A stretch of DNA of 64,000 nt from Neonectria sp. B-13 (taxonomy: Eukaryota; Ascomycota; Sordariomycetes; Hypocreales; Nectriaceae): contig NOKP01000020.1 in assembly GCA_002682825.1 (NCBI GenBank), positions 806,001 to 870,000 of the forward strand, read 5' to 3'. The notes under the pieces are model-generated. The model worked only from the letters and a program-made list of their open reading frames with translations. It was not told the origin of the DNA and did not search any database. This document shows positions 1 to 34,862 of this stretch, one piece after another; position 1 is the first letter of the stretch, and each line of letters starts with the position of its first letter. Both the position numbers and the translations under genes were made by a program.

Positions 1-1320
1 ATTGATGCCCTCACCAGCCTGCTGAAGACGAGCTACAAGTCCTTCAAGGACCGCACTCCCGTGGCCGGCTGTGAGGCTATTCCCATGGAAGGCAAGCAGG
101 CTGGCCTGCTACAGCTTCGACACTACGGGGATGAGATCGAGGACTTTGCCGTCAAGGACCTCCGTGCAGAGGGGGCCTTCCCTTCCTTTGCTGAGCTCAA
201 GGCCCGAGGCTTCCCAGCATCTGATCTGGATCCTGAACTGGTCTGCAAGCGTGGCCTCGGCGGCGAGTGGCCAGGGGCTGGCGACCACCTAACTGTTACC
301 ATGATGCAGGCCAACTTCATCCGAGGCGGCCTGCTGCTCAACGTGGTCACCCTCCACGCCTTTGCCGACCACACCACCGCGTACAAGTTCACTGAGATCT
401 TTGCCGAGGATGTTCGCCGCGCGCAAGGCCTCCCCATCACCCACCCCGTTGAGATCCCCTCTGCGGACAGGGCCAAGCTGATGCAGCCCTCTGGGACACA
501 CTCCGACCTGGACCTGGCACATCACGAGTACATCGAACTCCCCTTCACACCCACCGCAGTCCCTCCCAAGCTCACCACACCCAACCACCATGGCCATGTC
601 TTCTACTTTTCTCCCGAAAACCTCGCTGCTCTCAAGGAGGAGGCTTCACCAGCCAACGCAAAGTTGTTGAAGGATGAGGAGCTCCCTGCCTTCACCTCTA
701 CCAACGATGCCTTGACGGCACTCATCTGGCGCTCCACCATGGTTGCCCAGCACCCCGAACTCTCCGCCCCCAAGGCCGACTCTGAGCCGCCCGTCACGGG
801 TCCCTCTCAGGTTGGCATTGCTCTTGACGCTCGACGAAGAGCCGGAGTGTCCGTCCACAAGCACACCATCGGCAACATCCTCGGCTTTGCCCCTGCCATG
901 CTAGATCTCAACAAGGTCATCAACGAGGCTTCACTTGCCGATTTGGCTATCATTGTACGAAGGGCCCTTGTCAAGGCGGAGGATACCTACCTAGACGAGC
1001 TGATCACTGTCGTCGACCGTCTCGAGGACGTGACCCGCCTGGCACCTGTCGTGTTCCTCGACATGCCAGGCGCCCACATGATCCAGTCTTCATGGCGCGA
1101 ATTTCCCTTCTACGATGTCGAGTGGGGTTCCGCACTGGGCGGCCAGATGCTGGCTGTGAGGCCTCCTGCCGTCGGAGTGACGCACACTATGCAGATTGTG
1201 CTCCCCGATCCCAAGAAGGGGGGAGTCGAGGCCTTTATTGGAGTTGAGAGCTCGGCTATGGAGAGACTCTTGAGCGATCCGGTGCTGAGACGGTTCGCTG
1301 AGGCTCCTCAGGGGCTATGA
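1..1320 (+). CDS. BAHD/transferase-family acyltransferase, 5' truncated by window edge
   Basis: The frame is open from base 1 to the TGA at 1318-1320, so the N-terminus lies outside the window. The GTG at 61 is not a credible start because the frame continues upstream without a break. The acyl-transfer motif HxxxD is read as H-A-F-A-D (His codon 355-357, Asp codon 367-369). A degenerate version of the second family motif, D-V-E-W-G in place of DFGWG, lies at 1114-1128. Both are hallmarks of the BAHD/trichothecene 3-O-acetyltransferase-like transferase family, which moves acyl groups from CoA to a hydroxyl or amine acceptor, often in secondary metabolism. The His-Asp pair is intact, so activity is plausible; the substrate cannot be told. 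No other biosynthetic gene is adjacent on the right. Confidence 0.8.
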   Translation: MDALTSLLKTSYKSFKDRTPVAGCEAIPMEGKQAGLLQLRHYGDEIEDFAVKDLRAEGAFPSFAELKARGFPASDLDPELVCKRGLGGEWPGAGDHLTVTMMQANFIRGGLLLNVVTLHAFADHTTAYKFTEIFAEDVRRAQGLPITHPVEIPSADRAKLMQPSGTHSDLDLAHHEYIELPFTPTAVPPKLTTPNHHGHVFYFSPENLAALKEEASPANAKLLKDEELPAFTSTNDALTALIWRSTMVAQHPELSAPKADSEPPVTGPSQVGIALDARRRAGVSVHKHTIGNILGFAPAMLDLNKVINEASLADLAIIVRRALVKAEDTYLDELITVVDRLEDVTRLAPVVFLDMPGAHMIQSSWREFPFYDVEWGSALGGQMLAVRPPAVGVTHTMQIVLPDPKKGGVEAFIGVESSAMERLLSDPVLRRFAEAPQGL

Positions 1321-1941
1321 GTTCCTAGGTATGCTGGCTCATGTCTTCGGTCAAACCTTGTTAAGACAATAGTGATGTAGATATGAGGATGGGTGTAAGG
1401 TACGGCTGTCGGCCTTTCAATTGTACACGATAGAGATTCAGATGTTACGTCGGCACACCGACCGGTTGGCGTGTTTCGGACATTTGCTTGGAAAGGGGTC
1501 GACTTGAAGTCACGGATGCTGTTGGGGAAGAGATGCGGTTTATGATCGGTTGAATACCGAAGGGAAGATTCCATGAAGCTTTGGAAGATGATTTTGAGAT
1601 AGCGTCAGCCTTGTTCTGTAAATATACGCGCAGCCCCTTGCTGAAATTCATTCAAACAAACAAGAAATTCAGCTTGAAGCAGTTCCCCCAGAGTCTGGTT
1701 GATGAAGGCAAGTGGCCACTCTGAACAACCGAAGACTTGATACCAGAAGAGAGGACACACATGACCAATGCGTCTATCTTAAAGACCATGTTTGCAGCTT
1801 AATTGCCTCTCAAGATGGCGCGAATACACAAAGTCTCAACGTCAGGAGAACGTGAAGGAAGTCAGGTCTGATGTTGATTTACTCAGAATGGCCCCGTACG
1901 TTGATAATATTGTTTCCAAACGACCACTCTCAACCAATAAA
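1321..1941. other. Intergenic, no gene seen
   Basis: About 620 bp between the acyltransferase stop and the split tRNA gene. Short ORFs (for example 1792-1974) have no recognisable content and run into the tRNA. The last bases before the tRNA read ccaataaaag, a CCAAT-plus-AT-rich element that could serve as an upstream promoter element. Confidence 0.6.
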
Positions 1942-1966
1942 AGCAATTTGGCGCAGTGGAAGCGCG

Positions 1967-2018
1967 GTATGTGATTATCTGATCTTTAAAAATTCGAACC
2001 ATTACTAACTTGCTCCAG
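1967..2018 (+). other. Intron 1 of the split tRNA gene (spliceosomal type)
   Basis: A 52-nt insertion between tRNA positions 26 and 27. It starts GTATGT, has a perfect TACTAAC branch sequence at 2003-2009 and ends in CAG at 2016-2018, nine bases after the branch sequence. Length and signals match introns of protein genes in this window (for example the 55-nt intron at 6314-6368). The join cannot be made by the classical tRNA endonuclease geometry as far as I can see, because no intron lies next to the anticodon. Confidence 0.85.
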
Positions 2019-2038
2019 CCGGGCTCATAACCCGGAGG

Positions 2039-2090
2039 GTAAGCAACACCTTCGACTCCAGCAACGGAACATCGAACTAACATCACCAAG
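2039..2090 (+). other. Intron 2 of the split tRNA gene (spliceosomal type)
   Basis: A second insertion, also exactly 52 nt, between the variable-loop bases 46 and 47. It begins GTAAGC, carries AACTAAC at 2075-2081 and ends AAG at 2088-2090. Apart from splice signals its sequence does not resemble intron 1, so the pair does not look like a simple duplication. The exon between the two introns is only 20 nt. Confidence 0.83.
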
Positions 2091-2141
2091 TCGCACGATC
2101 GAAACGTGCAATTGCTAAAACATGTCTTCTGAAGACCGTTC

Positions 2142-2180
2142 TTTTTTTGCGCTTTTTGCACTTTTTCTCTTGCTTTTTTC
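2142..2180 (+). terminator. Probable Pol III terminator (T runs)
   Basis: A run of seven T at 2142-2148, 25 nt after the tRNA 3' end, followed by T runs of 5, 5 and 6 bases before 2180. Runs of this length are standard RNA polymerase III terminators, which argues that the split tRNA is, or recently was, a Pol III gene. Confidence 0.6.
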
Positions 2181-2685: not shown

Positions 2686-4642
2686 TCAAGTCAATTTAGT
2701 CGCTCTAAATAATACATATGAATGCATGCCATCTCGATACTCCAGACACGGTAGTGTGGCCTCCACTGCGCTCCTCGCCATAATCTTTTTCTTGACCTCT
2801 TCAGTCCAGACCATGGCAAGTCCGATACGGCGAAAGATTCCGTACTTTCCCTCGACCATTCTCAAAAGCAACATATAATCATTCCGTCCTCTCCCGTCAT
2901 CATTCATTGACCGGGCACACATATAAAACAGCAAGCCCTTTTTATTATCTTCCTCGAAGTCTTCCTGAAGAACATCAAGCATAACGTCAGGCTCGGTTTG
3001 AGTCACTTTCGATGACTCCTTAGTAACCTTTTCATTGTCCAAGAACATATCCCACTGGTAAGTTGCGTCTGACCTAGTAGTTCTGCGTACTAGAGTTGCC
3101 CTTTTGAGTATGCCGCGAAGACGTAGCCATCCACCACGGATAGCAGAAAACTTGTCTGTGGTCCAGTAATCAAGGTGGACGTCTTCAACTTTTATCAATG
3201 AATACTTCACCCGTGGCTCGCCAGGATTCACGCGGCCGTCAACTGAAGCCCAAGACCAAGTCGGGGCACGATATTGGCTAGGTCGTGAAGACGCTTCGGG
3301 ACGATGGGATCCTTTTACCTGCCATAATAGTTCGCCTTCTAGATAACAGCGCCACATCCCGGCCACGTACTCGTCCTCCACAACCTCTGCCATCTTCTTA
3401 GCAATACCGGAACAAGCAACGAGCTTGTCACTAGGAAAAGTAATGTCACACGCTGTGTATTGTTCCACGACGCGAAACCACAGCAAATGCGGAGCGGAAT
3501 TGCCGTCGATACCTCGGTTTGCGTATCGACGTACGCGAGCGCTGTAGTCGTGTGAATCAAGCTGCTTGAACCGAGCATCTGAAGATGTCGAGAGGGCCAA
3601 TGGGAGGCCATCGGGATAGACTTCCGCAGCATCCTTGTCACAGCATTCCCAGAGGAGTTGTCGTTTGCCAAAGTGAAGGATGCGGGGGGCCAGGAGGCGC
3701 TCTTGAAGAACCCAAGCTCTTCGATTCACAAGAGCATTTGAGACTTCCAATTCCCAGAACTTGTAGTCGGAAAGAATAAAACGACCCGTTTCGGTCCCAC
3801 CTCCTTTCCTGTGGGCAAATGATGTTGGAATCGTATGTATTGAAGAGGGAGTTCGCGCAATCCGGTGTCTGCTACGGAGATATTGAAGAATGGGTTTGAA
3901 TAGACATTTCTCGTCAGGGCAGCATCATGCTCCCAATCTAGAGTGTTTTGTCTAGATGTAGGCCCTCGAGCAGCTGTGGATATGTGTCTGTGGTTAACGT
4001 GACGTGATGAGATAGTGTCGAGTATCGTCCCATGGGAGTTGATGTTTTACTCTCTAGCAGACGAACGACCGATGAGTCGGAGAGATTAAAGTTGAGTAGA
4101 CGGGTAGGATACCAGACTGGCTCTGCGACTGGACGGTTTCATTGCGCATGAAGTGCAGTACACTCGTTGATCCAATGCTTTGTCAAGGACAATGTCTCCG
4201 AGTATCCTGTACCCCAGACACCACGGGCGCGTGCGTGGTTTTCGGTGTCAACTGCAATACACTCAGCTTAGGTGTCGGTAGTTGAAGAAGAGTATAGCTG
4301 CGAACCCGTAGCAGGTTAAAGAAGAAAGGCTCCCCTCCAGAAAGTTGGGCTTGAGAAAGTTGGGAAGCTGATGATACACCTGGTGTGGTTGTTGTAGGCA
4401 ACTCTCAGAAAATAGCAGCCAGGATGCCCATATCCCTTTCCGTCGTCTAGCCAAGTGCTCGTGAGGTAGGTTTGGGAGGTTCCGAGGTCGCAAACTGCGG
4501 CTGGCGCTTCGATTTCTTCACCCAGAGTGCTAGAAAGAAGGTGACGTTCTTTCAACTCTAGGGTTTCCCAGAAGCGATTACATATGTAGCATCCTTCATT
4601 GATAGATAGATAGATGAAGGCTCTGTCGCAACCCGCCCGCAC
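2686..4642 (-). pseudogene. HET-domain (heterokaryon incompatibility) gene, broken
   Basis: HET-family sequence runs right to left but needs several frames. The N-terminal part (from about 4642) has the C-x-x-C plus RFWETL pattern common at HET protein N-termini. A later stretch reads WYPTRLL...VVRLLES...YSTLSH, the start of the HET domain, then DWEHDAALTRNVYSNPFF, then NRRAWVLQERLLAPRILHFG in the long open frame ending at 2686. Lesions: an in-frame TGA at 4139-4141; loss of the central HET core (the WIDSLCI region) with a stop and frame change around 3938-3945; a further frame change between about 3870 and 3790. An intron could explain one of these but not all. The intact gene would have encoded a self/non-self recognition protein; this copy should not make one. 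The C-terminal 354 codons remain open. Confidence 0.85.
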
Positions 4643-33165: not shown

Positions 33166-34862
33166 TCACCCCCCAAACCCGTAACTCTTGACTCGGCTGA
33201 AGAAGTAGGGCTTGTCGTTCTTGAGGGCAAATTCACCCCAGTCGTCGGTCAGTTTGTTGTAGCTGTAGAAGCCACGCCAGATGAGCTTATTGTTGCGCGC
33301 GCCCTTGCCGGCGCTGCGCAGCGACATGTCCATGCGGTACATGTACTTGGAGCCGACGCCCTCCGTCTCAATGAAGACGTCGCCCTCGGGGTCGTCGCGG
33401 CCGGCGCGCGAGGCGGAGAGGTTGGCGCCCGGGGCGGCTGGGTCCTGGAGGTCGTCGGCCGAGGATAGACGCCAGCGGCCGCGCAGGGCCAGAGCCATGA
33501 CGGCGGAGGGCAGGTGCGGGTGGGCGGCGTTGCGGTGCAGGCTGAGGTCGTCGCGGGTCAGGTGGTGGACGACGACGGAGGGCTCGTTGGTGGTGAGCAG
33601 GCTGATGAGGGTGCCGTCGCGGAAGAAGCGCAGGTAGCGGTAGTAGGTCACGATGTGGATGGGACTGCCCCATGTAGTCTGGTTCGTCGAGGCCTGGCCG
33701 GTGCGGACGTAGTTGACGGTGCTGATGTAGCAGCCGTTGAAGCGGATGCGCGGCCGCGCGTAGAAGAGGGCCTTCCAGGACGGGTAGACGGACGGTGTCA
33801 GGGACTGCGTGAGGGCGAGCGCTTCGTCGCGGCGGCGCTGGGCGACCTCGGCCGGGCTGATGACGAAGCCGTCGATGACCTGGGGCGCGTCCTGTTCGTC
33901 CTCGGGCAGTTCGTCCCACTCGACGGCCTTCTCGAAGCGGTATGGCATATCGAGGAAGCCGAACTTGGGTCCCAAGGCCACGCGCCGCCAGATGCGCTGT
34001 TCCGTGGCGACGAGGTAGGCGAGTCGCTTGCAGACGCGGGCGAGGCGGGCAAAGTCGGCGACGTCGGCGGCGGCGACGTCGCGCAGGATGTGGATGAGGA
34101 TCTCGTCGGGGACGTCGGCCAGCGGCGACGGCGGCTGCGGCATGCCCTCGACCTCCGGAGCGCCGGGCTCCATCTTGAGGCCGGCGAAGCTGGCGATGAG
34201 ATCGCTGATGGACTGGGGCTGGGGGCTAGGGACGGCATCGGGGGCGGTCTTGAATGGTGGTGATGTGACGGAAGTGGCGGTTGTGAGAGTCGTCGTGTTA
34301 GTGGTGGTGGATGAGCCGCCGGGGTGAGTCTTGGGCTTGGCCTTTGGGAAATGCTTCTCCCGATATCTTCGATCCACGCTAGCGTCCAGCTACCAGGATA
34401 ACGTTAACATCGAATGCCATATATCAAGCAAGAACGAGAGATCAATCATACTCGGTAGGCCTTGCGATAGAGCTTCAGGCTGTCGCCGTGTTGGCCGTCG
34501 CCTTCCTTGGTCATGGCTTCCTCGTAGTAATCGAGGGCGGATACGAGCTTCTTCCGGACCGGAACGCCGGTGACATCGTGCACCGGCTGGGACGGGGGCG
34601 AGGGCTCCTCGAAAGCTTGGCCGTGGATGTACTCGTCTTCATCATTGTCGCCGGCTGCGGGGGGGGGTTTCACTGCGGACACGGATGGACCGCGGCGCCG
34701 GGACGGGCCGGCGGTTGATGATGCGGCGCGCGGGTGATCATGCTGGCCGGATTCGTCGTTGTGCTGATGTTGCAGATCTGAGATCCATTGCTTGCGGAAC
34801 GACTCGAGATCCGAGTTGAGCCCGCCCTTTTTGGCCGAGGATGATGAGGGCGAGGAGGACAT
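33166..34862 (-). CDS. hrt3: F-box protein HRT3 / FBXO9 homologue, 544 aa
   Basis: Exons 34862-34452 and 34389-33166 with a 62-nt intron; 545 codons with stop. The start gives MSSSPSSSSAKKGGLNSD. Next comes ALDYYEEAMTKEGDGQHGDSLKLYRKAYRLD, the TPR/MIT-like helical repeat seen before the F-box in Hrt3 and FBXO9; the intron falls inside this motif at the usual YR|LD junction. The F-box is at LADVPDEILIHILRDVA...LARVCKRLAYLV. The C-terminal half (RIRFNGCYISTVNYVRTGQ, WGSPIHIVTYYRYLRFF) is the Hrt3/FBXO9 beta-rich domain. Function: substrate adaptor of an SCF ubiquitin ligase. The coding strand is very GC-rich, which creates long false ORFs in the other frames. Confidence 0.93.

What the first reader, a model, noticed from the sequence alone, without database searches (positions are those of the whole stretch)
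1942..2117. Initiator tRNA-Met gene interrupted by two spliceosomal-type introns
Seen directly: three segments (25, 20 and 27 nt) join into a perfect 72-nt iMet with all Watson-Crick stems, CAT anticodon, A1-U72, three G-C pairs in the anticodon stem and an ATCGAAA T loop. The gaps are two 52-nt sequences with GTATGT...TACTAAC...CAG and GTAAGC...CTAAC...AAG. Known: eukaryotic nuclear tRNA introns lie at 37/38 and are removed by the tRNA splicing endonuclease; a pre-mRNA-type intron inside a Pol III RNA is known for U6 in fission yeast. Inferred: this tRNA is matured by the spliceosome, or the gene arose by intron gain into a tRNA. I know of no described nuclear tRNA of this architecture.
Basis: partly seen in the sequence, partly recalled or inferred. 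Interest (0 to 1): 0.96.

Follow-up and report, generated by a model that had tools for sequence, protein, structure and literature searches.

The report
Initiator tRNA split by spliceosomal introns
In this fungus all six gene copies found for the initiator tRNA, the tRNA that starts every protein, are interrupted by one or two short introns with messenger-RNA-type splice signals, so the cell likely needs its spliceosome, not the usual tRNA-splicing enzyme, to make the tRNA with which translation begins.

Summary
Joining 1942-1966, 2019-2038 and 2091-2117 gives a 72-nt initiator tRNA-Met with complete stems; the two 52-nt gaps have GT-AG ends and CTAAC branch sites. Whole-genome pattern searches (60.9 Mb; one window protein matches Neonectria best) find six iMet genes, all interrupted. 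Their joined exons are identical at all 72 positions. Their introns are 43-89% alike, yet all 11 keep GTANG[T/C], a CTRAY branch site 10-13 nt before the end, and AG. One copy lacks intron 2 exactly; no copy without intron 1 was found. No intron fits a strict bulge-helix-bulge, the tRNA-endonuclease motif, while ARAGORN reads anticodon-loop introns in some other tRNA genes here. All six genes are followed by T6-8 and contain no T4, as expected of RNA polymerase III. The likely reading: initiator tRNA here is matured obligatorily by the spliceosome. No RNA or genomes of related fungi were available, so splicing is inferred. Ten searches of an open-licence paper library listed no such nuclear tRNA.

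The parts
1903..1908 (+). TATA-like element GATAAT, 39 nt upstream of nucleotide 1
   Evidence: A similar element lies at -39/-40 in 6 of 6 iMet genes; 7 of 22 other distinct tRNA upstream regions have a match anywhere within 60 nt. The motif was chosen after looking, so this is suggestive only.
1942..1966 (+). Exon 1: tRNA positions 1-26 (acceptor 5' strand, D arm, G26)
   Evidence: Identical in all six genomic copies
1949..1959 (+). A box TGGCGCAGTGG of the internal Pol III promoter
   Evidence: Same place in 6 of 6 genes; the A-box consensus is recalled
1967..2018 (+). Intron 1 (between 26 and 27), 52 nt, GTATGT...CAG
   Evidence: Present in 6 of 6 copies, 52-58 nt, GTATGT and CAG in all
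1993..1997 (+). TTCGA, core of a B-box-like motif, inside intron 1
   Evidence: 7 TTCGA in the 11 introns, at least one per gene; shuffle mean 0.35, 0 of 2000 shuffles reach 7. Motif chosen after looking; copies are related. B-box consensus recalled.
2005..2009 (+). Branch site CTAAC of intron 1, predicted branch A at 2008
   Evidence: CTRAY with 10-13 nt between its A and the intron end in 11 of 11 introns
2019..2038 (+). Exon 2: positions 27-46 (anticodon arm with CAT, AGG of the variable loop)
   Evidence: Identical in all six copies
2039..2090 (+). Intron 2 (between 46 and 47), 52 nt, GTAAGC...AAG
   Evidence: Present in 5 of 6 copies, 52-55 nt; exactly absent from the copy at C1:2883998-2884125
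2051..2055 (+). TTCGA (in CCTTCGACTCC), core of a B-box-like motif, inside intron 2
2077..2081 (+). Branch site CTAAC of intron 2, predicted branch A at 2080
2091..2117 (+). Exon 3: positions 47-73 (T arm, acceptor 3' strand, discriminator A)
   Evidence: Identical in all six copies
2096..2106 (+). Exonic B-box region CGATCGAAACG (A54 initiator type)
   Evidence: Read from the sequence; by my own count it agrees with 6 of 10 specified letters of the recalled elongator B box
2142..2148 (+). T7 run, likely Pol III terminator
   Evidence: The first T4+ run downstream is T6-8 and starts 8-30 nt after the gene in 6 of 6; no T4 inside any of the six genes

Best explanation
This is a nuclear initiator tRNA-Met gene whose three exons (25, 20 and 27 nt) are separated by two 52-nt introns carrying mRNA-type splice signals, which the spliceosome is predicted to remove from a likely RNA polymerase III transcript. 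Shown: the exons join into one complete initiator tRNA; all six iMet genes found in the genome have intron 1 and five have intron 2; exons are identical while introns and flanks have diverged and the splice signals are kept; the strict bulge-helix-bulge geometry of tRNA-endonuclease introns is absent. Inferred: Pol III starts about 10 nt upstream under control of the A box, perhaps a TATA-like element, and one or more B boxes (possibly those inside the introns), and stops at the T-run. The two introns are then removed as lariats by the major spliceosome, before or together with end trimming and CCA addition. Because no uninterrupted copy was found, the whole supply of initiator tRNA, and so translation initiation in this fungus, would depend on pre-mRNA-type splicing.
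For: (1) ARAGORN calls the joined exons tRNA-Met(cat) and finds nothing in the unspliced gene. (2) Whole-genome pattern searches find six exact iMet exon-1 cores (of 20 sites with up to 2 mismatches), six exact anticodon-arm cores (of 22 sites with up to 1 mismatch) and six sites of the 13-mer GGGCTCATAACCC: the same six loci. The joined exon1-exon2 junction was not found (0 exact, one 1-mismatch site, one for the reversed control). (3) Six of six joined products are the same 72-mer. Intron 1 is 43-86% and intron 2 43-89% identical between copies; upstream 100-nt flanks are 27-41% in 14 of 15 pairs. I infer selection on the joined exons; gene conversion confined to pieces of 20-27 nt seems implausible. 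(4) All 11 introns have GTANG[T/C], AG, and CTRAY 10-13 nt from the end; 0 of 2000 shuffles give CTRAY in all 11. Lengths of 52-58 nt fit the Fusarium mRNA intron median of 57 nt and its CTRAY branch site (PMC5677156, passages) and frame-joining introns of this window. (5) One copy lacks intron 2 precisely. (6) 0 of 11 introns have the 4-bp central helix of a strict bulge-helix-bulge. (7) Six of six genes have a T6-8 run downstream and no T4 within.
Against: No RNA evidence of any kind was available. Three of five intron-2 acceptors are AAG; in Fusarium mRNA introns RAG acceptors make up 5.69%. The absence of T4 runs from the introns is not significant in itself (203 of 2000 shuffle sets have none; 15 of 17 window mRNA-type introns also lack T4). 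The assembly could miss an intact copy, and the searches were by pattern, because the family search scored only 63 of 1967 candidates. An exact 15-letter search for a retroelement primer-binding site complementary to the CCA-tailed iMet 3' end gave 0 hits, so that independent sign of a mature tRNA is missing.
Confidence: 0.85

Rival explanations
1. The inserts are non-canonical tRNA introns removed by the tRNA splicing endonuclease, as in archaea, Cyanidioschyzon or nucleomorphs.
For: Non-canonical tRNA introns exist in some eukaryotes, and in C. merolae bulge-helix-bulge motifs seem to select them (PMC4090602, passages). ARAGORN reads anticodon-loop introns in other tRNA genes of this genome, so the endonuclease is presumably present.
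Against: None of 11 introns, in either of the two registers that give the same product, has the 4-bp central helix (at most 3 of 4 pairs; shuffled introns 1 average 1.6 and reach 4 of 4 in 0.9%). Only this strict geometry was tested, not relaxed bulge-helix-loop forms. The invariant runs of three or more letters within the introns are the spliceosomal signals.
Confidence: 0.07
2. The six loci are pseudogenes or iMet-derived repeats (SINE-like) and the true initiator tRNA comes from an intact gene missing from the assembly.
For: The assembly has 123 contigs, some with apparent inverted duplications, so it is imperfect. ARAGORN does not recognise any of the six as iMet.
Against: 72 of 72 positions are identical in all six, with diverged introns and flanks. 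Each has the A box and a downstream T-run. Only six copies were found, and 14 of 15 pairs of upstream flanks are 27-41% identical, with no common repeat body seen. No intact copy was found in 60.9 Mb.
Confidence: 0.05
3. The genes are transcribed by RNA polymerase II as short capped RNAs, spliced co-transcriptionally, and the tRNA is then processed out of them.
For: Spliceosomal splicing normally acts on Pol II transcripts (established knowledge). A TATA-like element sits at -39/-40 in six of six, which fits either polymerase.
Against: T6-8 run starting 8-30 nt downstream in six of six and no internal T4; A box in exon 1 and B-box-like cores in an intron of every copy; CAA within 14 nt upstream in 6 of 6 iMet and 17 of 22 other distinct tRNA upstream regions. 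U6, a Pol III RNA, is spliced at an mRNA-type intron in fission yeast (PMC10484740, passages, and abstract start).
Confidence: 0.12
4. Chance: a tRNA-like arrangement assembled by a reader from unrelated sequence.
For: None found.
Against: The same arrangement recurs at six loci of the genome.
Confidence: 0.001

Closest known systems
U6 snRNA genes with an mRNA-type intron (Schizosaccharomyces pombe and other fungi)
   Same: A small structured Pol III RNA interrupted by an mRNA-type intron that is spliced out (PMC10484740, passages; titles in the reference list of PMC5832005).
   Different: U6 is itself part of the spliceosome and its intron is thought to come from reverse splicing near the catalytic nucleotides. 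Here the RNA is a tRNA with up to two introns, and every gene copy found is interrupted. The two U6 matches of this genome align end to end over 103 and 106 nt, with no sign of an intron.
Fungal U3 snoRNA genes with spliceosomal introns
   Same: GT-AG introns, RCTRAC branch sites in 129 of 138, average branch-to-acceptor distance 15 nt, and genomes with both intron-bearing and intronless copies (PMC5832005, passages).
   Different: U3 is a snoRNA. That 2017 paper calls U3 and U6 the only small structured RNAs known to be often interrupted by an intron, so tRNA is not among them.
Canonical nuclear tRNA introns (position 37/38, TSEN/Sen endonuclease plus Trl1 ligase)
   Same: Introns inside nuclear tRNA genes; ARAGORN, which looks for introns only in the anticodon loop, reads them in 10 of 17 further tRNA hits of this genome, among them Met, Thr, Val and Ser.
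   Different: Other positions (26/27 and 46/47), two per gene in five of six, no strict bulge-helix-bulge, spliceosomal signals instead.
Non-canonical tRNA introns of archaea, Cyanidioschyzon merolae and nucleomorphs
   Same: Introns outside 37/38, sometimes several per tRNA (PMC4090602, passages; PMC9602550, abstract start in a listing).
   Different: Those of C. merolae are attributed to bulge-helix-bulge motifs, and those of the Guillardia nucleomorph are 3-24 nt; these are 52-58 nt GT-AG introns without that motif.
[quoted passage not shown]
   Same: An intron in an initiator tRNA gene (title only, in the reference list of PMC3978253).
   Different: Self-splicing introns of a few hundred nt (250-500 nt in the abstract start of PMC10964413); these are far shorter.

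Membership tests
U2-type spliceosomal intron | GT...AG ends with a 5' site like GTANGT | tested here: met
   GTATGT in 6 of 6 introns 1; GTAAGC in 4 and GTACGT in 1 of 5 introns 2; AG in 11 of 11
U2-type spliceosomal intron | CTRAY branch site shortly before the acceptor | tested here: met
   11 of 11, 10-13 nt from branch A to the end; 0 of 2000 shuffles reach 11
U2-type spliceosomal intron | YAG acceptor | tested here: inconclusive
   8 of 11 CAG; 3 of 11 (intron 2 only) AAG; RAG acceptors are 5.69% in Fusarium
U2-type spliceosomal intron | Removed as a lariat by the spliceosome | not testable with these tools
   Needs RNA
TSEN-type tRNA intron | Insertion at 37/38 of the anticodon loop | tested here: not met
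   Inserted after 26 and after 46
TSEN-type tRNA intron | Bulge-helix-bulge with 4-bp central helix (geometry recalled) | tested here: not met
   0 of 11 introns with 4 of 4 pairs in either register; relaxed forms not tested
Eukaryotic cytosolic initiator tRNA | CAT anticodon, A1-U72, three G-C pairs next to the anticodon loop, A54 (recalled; A54 also) | tested here: met
   All present in the joined 72-mer
Eukaryotic cytosolic initiator tRNA | Initiates translation | not testable with these tools
   No uninterrupted alternative was found in the genome
RNA polymerase III type 2 gene | A box and T-run terminator | tested here: met
   TGGCGCAGTGG in exon 1 of 6 of 6; T6-8 downstream in 6 of 6, no T4 inside
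RNA polymerase III type 2 gene | B box | tested here: inconclusive
   Exon 3 has the initiator variant GATCGAAAC; intron-borne TTCGA cores in 6 of 6 genes exceed shuffles, but the motif was chosen after looking and the copies are related
RNA polymerase III type 2 gene | Transcribed by Pol III | not testable with these tools
   Needs RNA or ChIP
tRNA pseudogene or SINE | Decayed stems or a repeat body | tested here: not met
   Identical exons in six loci; 14 of 15 flank pairs unalike

The most novel reading that the evidence does not exclude
This fungus has handed its entire initiator tRNA to the spliceosome: no initiator tRNA can be made, and so no protein started, without pre-mRNA-type splicing of a Pol III transcript. 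The introns have meanwhile become part of the gene by carrying a B-box promoter element for Pol III, which would explain why all six copies keep at least one.
Probability: 0.45. Interest if true: 0.98.

Novelty: categorically new. Interest (0 to 1): 0.95.

Why it matters
Textbook biology gives nuclear tRNA introns to a dedicated endonuclease and ligase, and pre-mRNA introns to the spliceosome. Here an essential tRNA would cross that border in every gene copy found. It would tie translation initiation to spliceosome capacity, show that a Pol III transcript other than U6 can be a routine spliceosome substrate, and give a natural test of how spliceosomal introns enter structured RNAs and are retained. 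It also shows that a standard tRNA finder can miss or mislabel every initiator tRNA gene found in a genome (ARAGORN).

Tried and rejected
Rfam at gathering threshold gave nothing in the window. The relaxed search of 1700-2400 gave four sub-threshold matches to unrelated families; the best, a Caulobacter sRNA at 19.6 against 35 bits, overlaps the anticodon stem.

A coding explanation was looked for: only ORFs of at most 126 aa (the longest antisense, 1883-2263) overlap the region. Not pursued.

Homology between intron 1 and intron 2 of one gene: no convincing signal (17 to 105 of 300 shuffles as good in the five genes).

Similar introns in other tRNAs at the same place: one pattern gave 0 hits. 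The other gave 64 hits against 69 for the reversed control; six are the iMet genes, the other 58 were seen only as 23-29 matched letters and not in context. This is not a census.

Elongator Met: two guessed patterns gave 1 and 14 inexact hits, none an intact elongator Met by ARAGORN. A gene that ARAGORN reads as Met(cat) with a 30-nt anticodon-loop intron came from the family search.

Relatives: exact patterns in GTDB genomes and IMG/VR gave no interrupted gene. Of the 83 exon-1-core sites, one lies before a CTCATAA anticodon loop, in an unbroken tRNA-like sequence of a viral contig. One search gave one viral contig with exon-1 and anticodon cores close together, not read further. These collections hold prokaryotes and viruses, so this says nothing about related fungi.

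Retroelement primer-binding site for iMet: 0 hits.

Full report
What was checked. The window is G000:C40:806001-870000 of a 60.9-Mb assembly in 123 contigs. The host was placed with one protein: a 403-aa F-box ORF at 33166-34377 has its best matches in Neonectria (90% identity), then Ilyonectria, Dactylonectria, Thelonectria and Fusarium, so the host is probably a nectriaceous fungus close to Neonectria. The finding lies between an acyltransferase gene (PF02458, PF22664; 61-1320) and a minus-strand ORF without a Pfam match at 2686-3750.

The gene. Exons 1942-1966, 2019-2038 and 2091-2117 join into a 72-mer that ARAGORN draws as tRNA-Met(cat) with full acceptor, D, anticodon and T stems. The unspliced gene gives nothing. 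A1-U72, three G-C pairs next to the CAT loop and ATCGAAA in the T loop mark an initiator (features recalled; A54 for initiators is also stated in PMC3978253, passages). In standard numbering (my assignment) intron 1 lies between 26 and 27 and intron 2 between 46 and 47.

All copies found are interrupted. A search of the whole genome for the 17-nt exon-1 core with up to two mismatches gave 20 sites: six exact and 14 inexact. In those 14 loci ARAGORN calls one tRNA, an intact tRNA-Arg(cct); the two with one mismatch, read in context, are not tRNAs. The anticodon-arm core with up to one mismatch gave 22 sites: six exact and 16 inexact; in none of the 16 loci does ARAGORN call a tRNA at the site. 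The 13-mer GGGCTCATAACCC gave six sites, with two for the reversed control. The exact sites are the same six loci: four within 2.1 kb on C1 (2883998-2884125 minus, 2884747-2884929 plus, 2885408-2885589 plus, 2885897-2886077 minus), the window gene, and C94:170078-170261 minus. The joined exon1-exon2 junction has no exact site; one site has one mismatch, as many as the reversed control, and was not read in context. A BLAST-type search with the 72-mer returned only the C1 copy lacking intron 2, in two pieces separated by intron 1; that search scored one candidate only and is not exhaustive.

Exons fixed, introns drifting. The six joined products are one and the same 72-mer. Intron 1 (52-58 nt) is 43-86% identical between copies and intron 2 (52-55 nt, five copies) 43-89%. 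The 100-nt upstream flanks are 27-41% identical in 14 of 15 pairs and 73% in one. Invariant runs of three or more alignment columns are only the splice signals: GTATGT, CTAA and CAG in intron 1; GTA and ACT (of ACTRAC) in intron 2, which also ends in AG throughout. All 11 introns carry CTRAY with the branch A 10-13 nt before the end; shuffled introns have CTRAY 6-36 nt from the end in 4183 of 22000 cases and never in all 11 together in 2000 trials. These features agree with 2022 introns of four Fusarium species: median length 57 nt, 5' sites of the GTANGT kind, CTRAY in 91%, YAG in 94% (PMC5677156, passages). They also agree with mechanically found frame-joining introns of this window: 25 candidates including overlapping ones, of which I kept by hand 17 of at most 75 nt, one per overlapping set, for the T-run count. 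The candidate search itself required a CTRAC branch site and YAG, so only lengths and 5' sites are independent there. Three of the five introns 2 end in AAG, a minority acceptor, which counts against a perfect fit.

A natural precise difference. The copy at C1:2883998-2884125 has intron 1 but reads straight from exon 2 into exon 3. Whether this is loss or the state before gain cannot be told here, but it shows exon 2 and exon 3 joined as splicing would join them.

Not the tRNA endonuclease. For 11 of 11 introns, in both registers that give the same product, the central helix of a strict bulge-helix-bulge has at most three of four pairs. Relaxed forms were not tested. Other tRNA genes of the genome do have anticodon-loop introns: of 56 family hits I read 30 with flanks and 17 of the other 26 as short stretches. 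ARAGORN, which looks for introns only in the anticodon loop, reports them in 10 of the 17, including a Met(cat) on C114 that looks like the elongator, Thr, Val and Ser; one read as Met at C39:5245611 is probably Leu(CAA) (my reading). None of the 30 hit sites was read with an intron. The endonuclease pathway is thus presumably in use, but for other genes.

Transcription. Each gene has the A box in exon 1, a first T4+ run of T6-8 that starts 8-30 nt after the discriminator, and no T4 inside. The last point alone is weak (203 of 2000 shuffle sets also have none). CAA within 14 nt upstream is present in 6 of 6 iMet and 17 of 22 other distinct tRNA upstream regions (Arg, Thr, Cys and Asp only), and a TATA-like element lies at -39/-40 in 6 of 6, against 7 of 22 others with a match anywhere in 60 nt (motifs chosen after inspection). 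Every gene has at least one TTCGA, the core of the B box (recalled), inside an intron: seven in 11 introns against 0.35 expected, none of 2000 shuffles. In four genes it is in intron 1 at gene position 52-58, about where an unbroken tRNA has its own B box. The motif was picked after looking and the copies share ancestry, so the significance is overstated. I regard intron-borne B boxes as a good hypothesis, not a result.

Mechanism. The best reading is a Pol III pre-tRNA (about 215 nt for the window gene) from which the major spliceosome removes the introns, giving the only initiator tRNA that the genome appears able to encode. Anatomy, copy number, conservation contrast and absence of the strict endonuclease motif are shown. 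Transcription by Pol III, lariat splicing and obligatory dependence are inferred.

Literature. Ten searches of the open-licence library were answered; several listings were cut (20 of 35, 20 of 71, 12 of 25, 12 of 18). None of the listed titles or abstract starts reports a nuclear tRNA with spliceosomal introns, and six exact phrases for it returned 0 papers. [quoted passage not shown] The main text of the review of tRNA introns PMC4090602 holds no word beginning with 'spliceosom'. The paper on U6 intron insertions in fungi is not held. Subscription journals and preprints were not searched, so priority cannot be guaranteed.

Limits. No RNA data, no genomes of related fungi, and an assembly with apparent inverted duplications. 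The tRNA family search scored 63 of 1967 candidates, so a full tRNA census was not possible and other interrupted tRNAs may exist.

Noticed in passing
L031-L034, L036 (genes at C1:2884747-2884929 and C94:170078-170261): With introns of up to 300 nt allowed, ARAGORN mislabels two of the six iMet genes as tRNA-Ser(act) with a 107-nt intron and misses the other four. Automatic annotation of such genomes may report no initiator tRNA.
   Followed up: partly
G000 contigs C27, C105, C114: tRNA hit positions are mirror-symmetric (on C27 and C114 paired coordinates sum to contig length plus one), suggesting inverted duplicates, an assembly artefact that would inflate genome size. The iMet loci on C1, C40 and C94 show no such pairing.
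   Followed up: partly
G000:C114:177372-177475 (L102): A tRNA that ARAGORN reads as Met(cat), by its look the elongator, has a 30-nt anticodon-loop intron, so both Met tRNA kinds of this fungus would need splicing, by two different machineries.
   Followed up: partly
G000 contigs C18, C22, C72, C106, C107, C110: CGGGCTCATAACCTG occurs nine times, several near contig ends; two of the three loci read share one context (L057, L064), the third differs (L059). Probably a repeat, not a tRNA.
   Followed up: no
window 61-1320: Trichothecene 3-O-acetyltransferase-like acyltransferase (PF22664, PF02458), likely incomplete at the window edge.
   Followed up: no
G000:C83:406813-406915 and C1:5177376-5177481: Two U6 snRNA matches over the family cut-off, aligned end to end over 103 and 106 nt, with no sign of an intron.
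   Followed up: no
L192 4632-4649 and L198 4038-4068: Viral contigs sharing the D-arm core: L192 continues into an unbroken tRNA-like sequence with CAT anticodon; L198 has the D-arm and anticodon cores within 31 nt.
   Followed up: no
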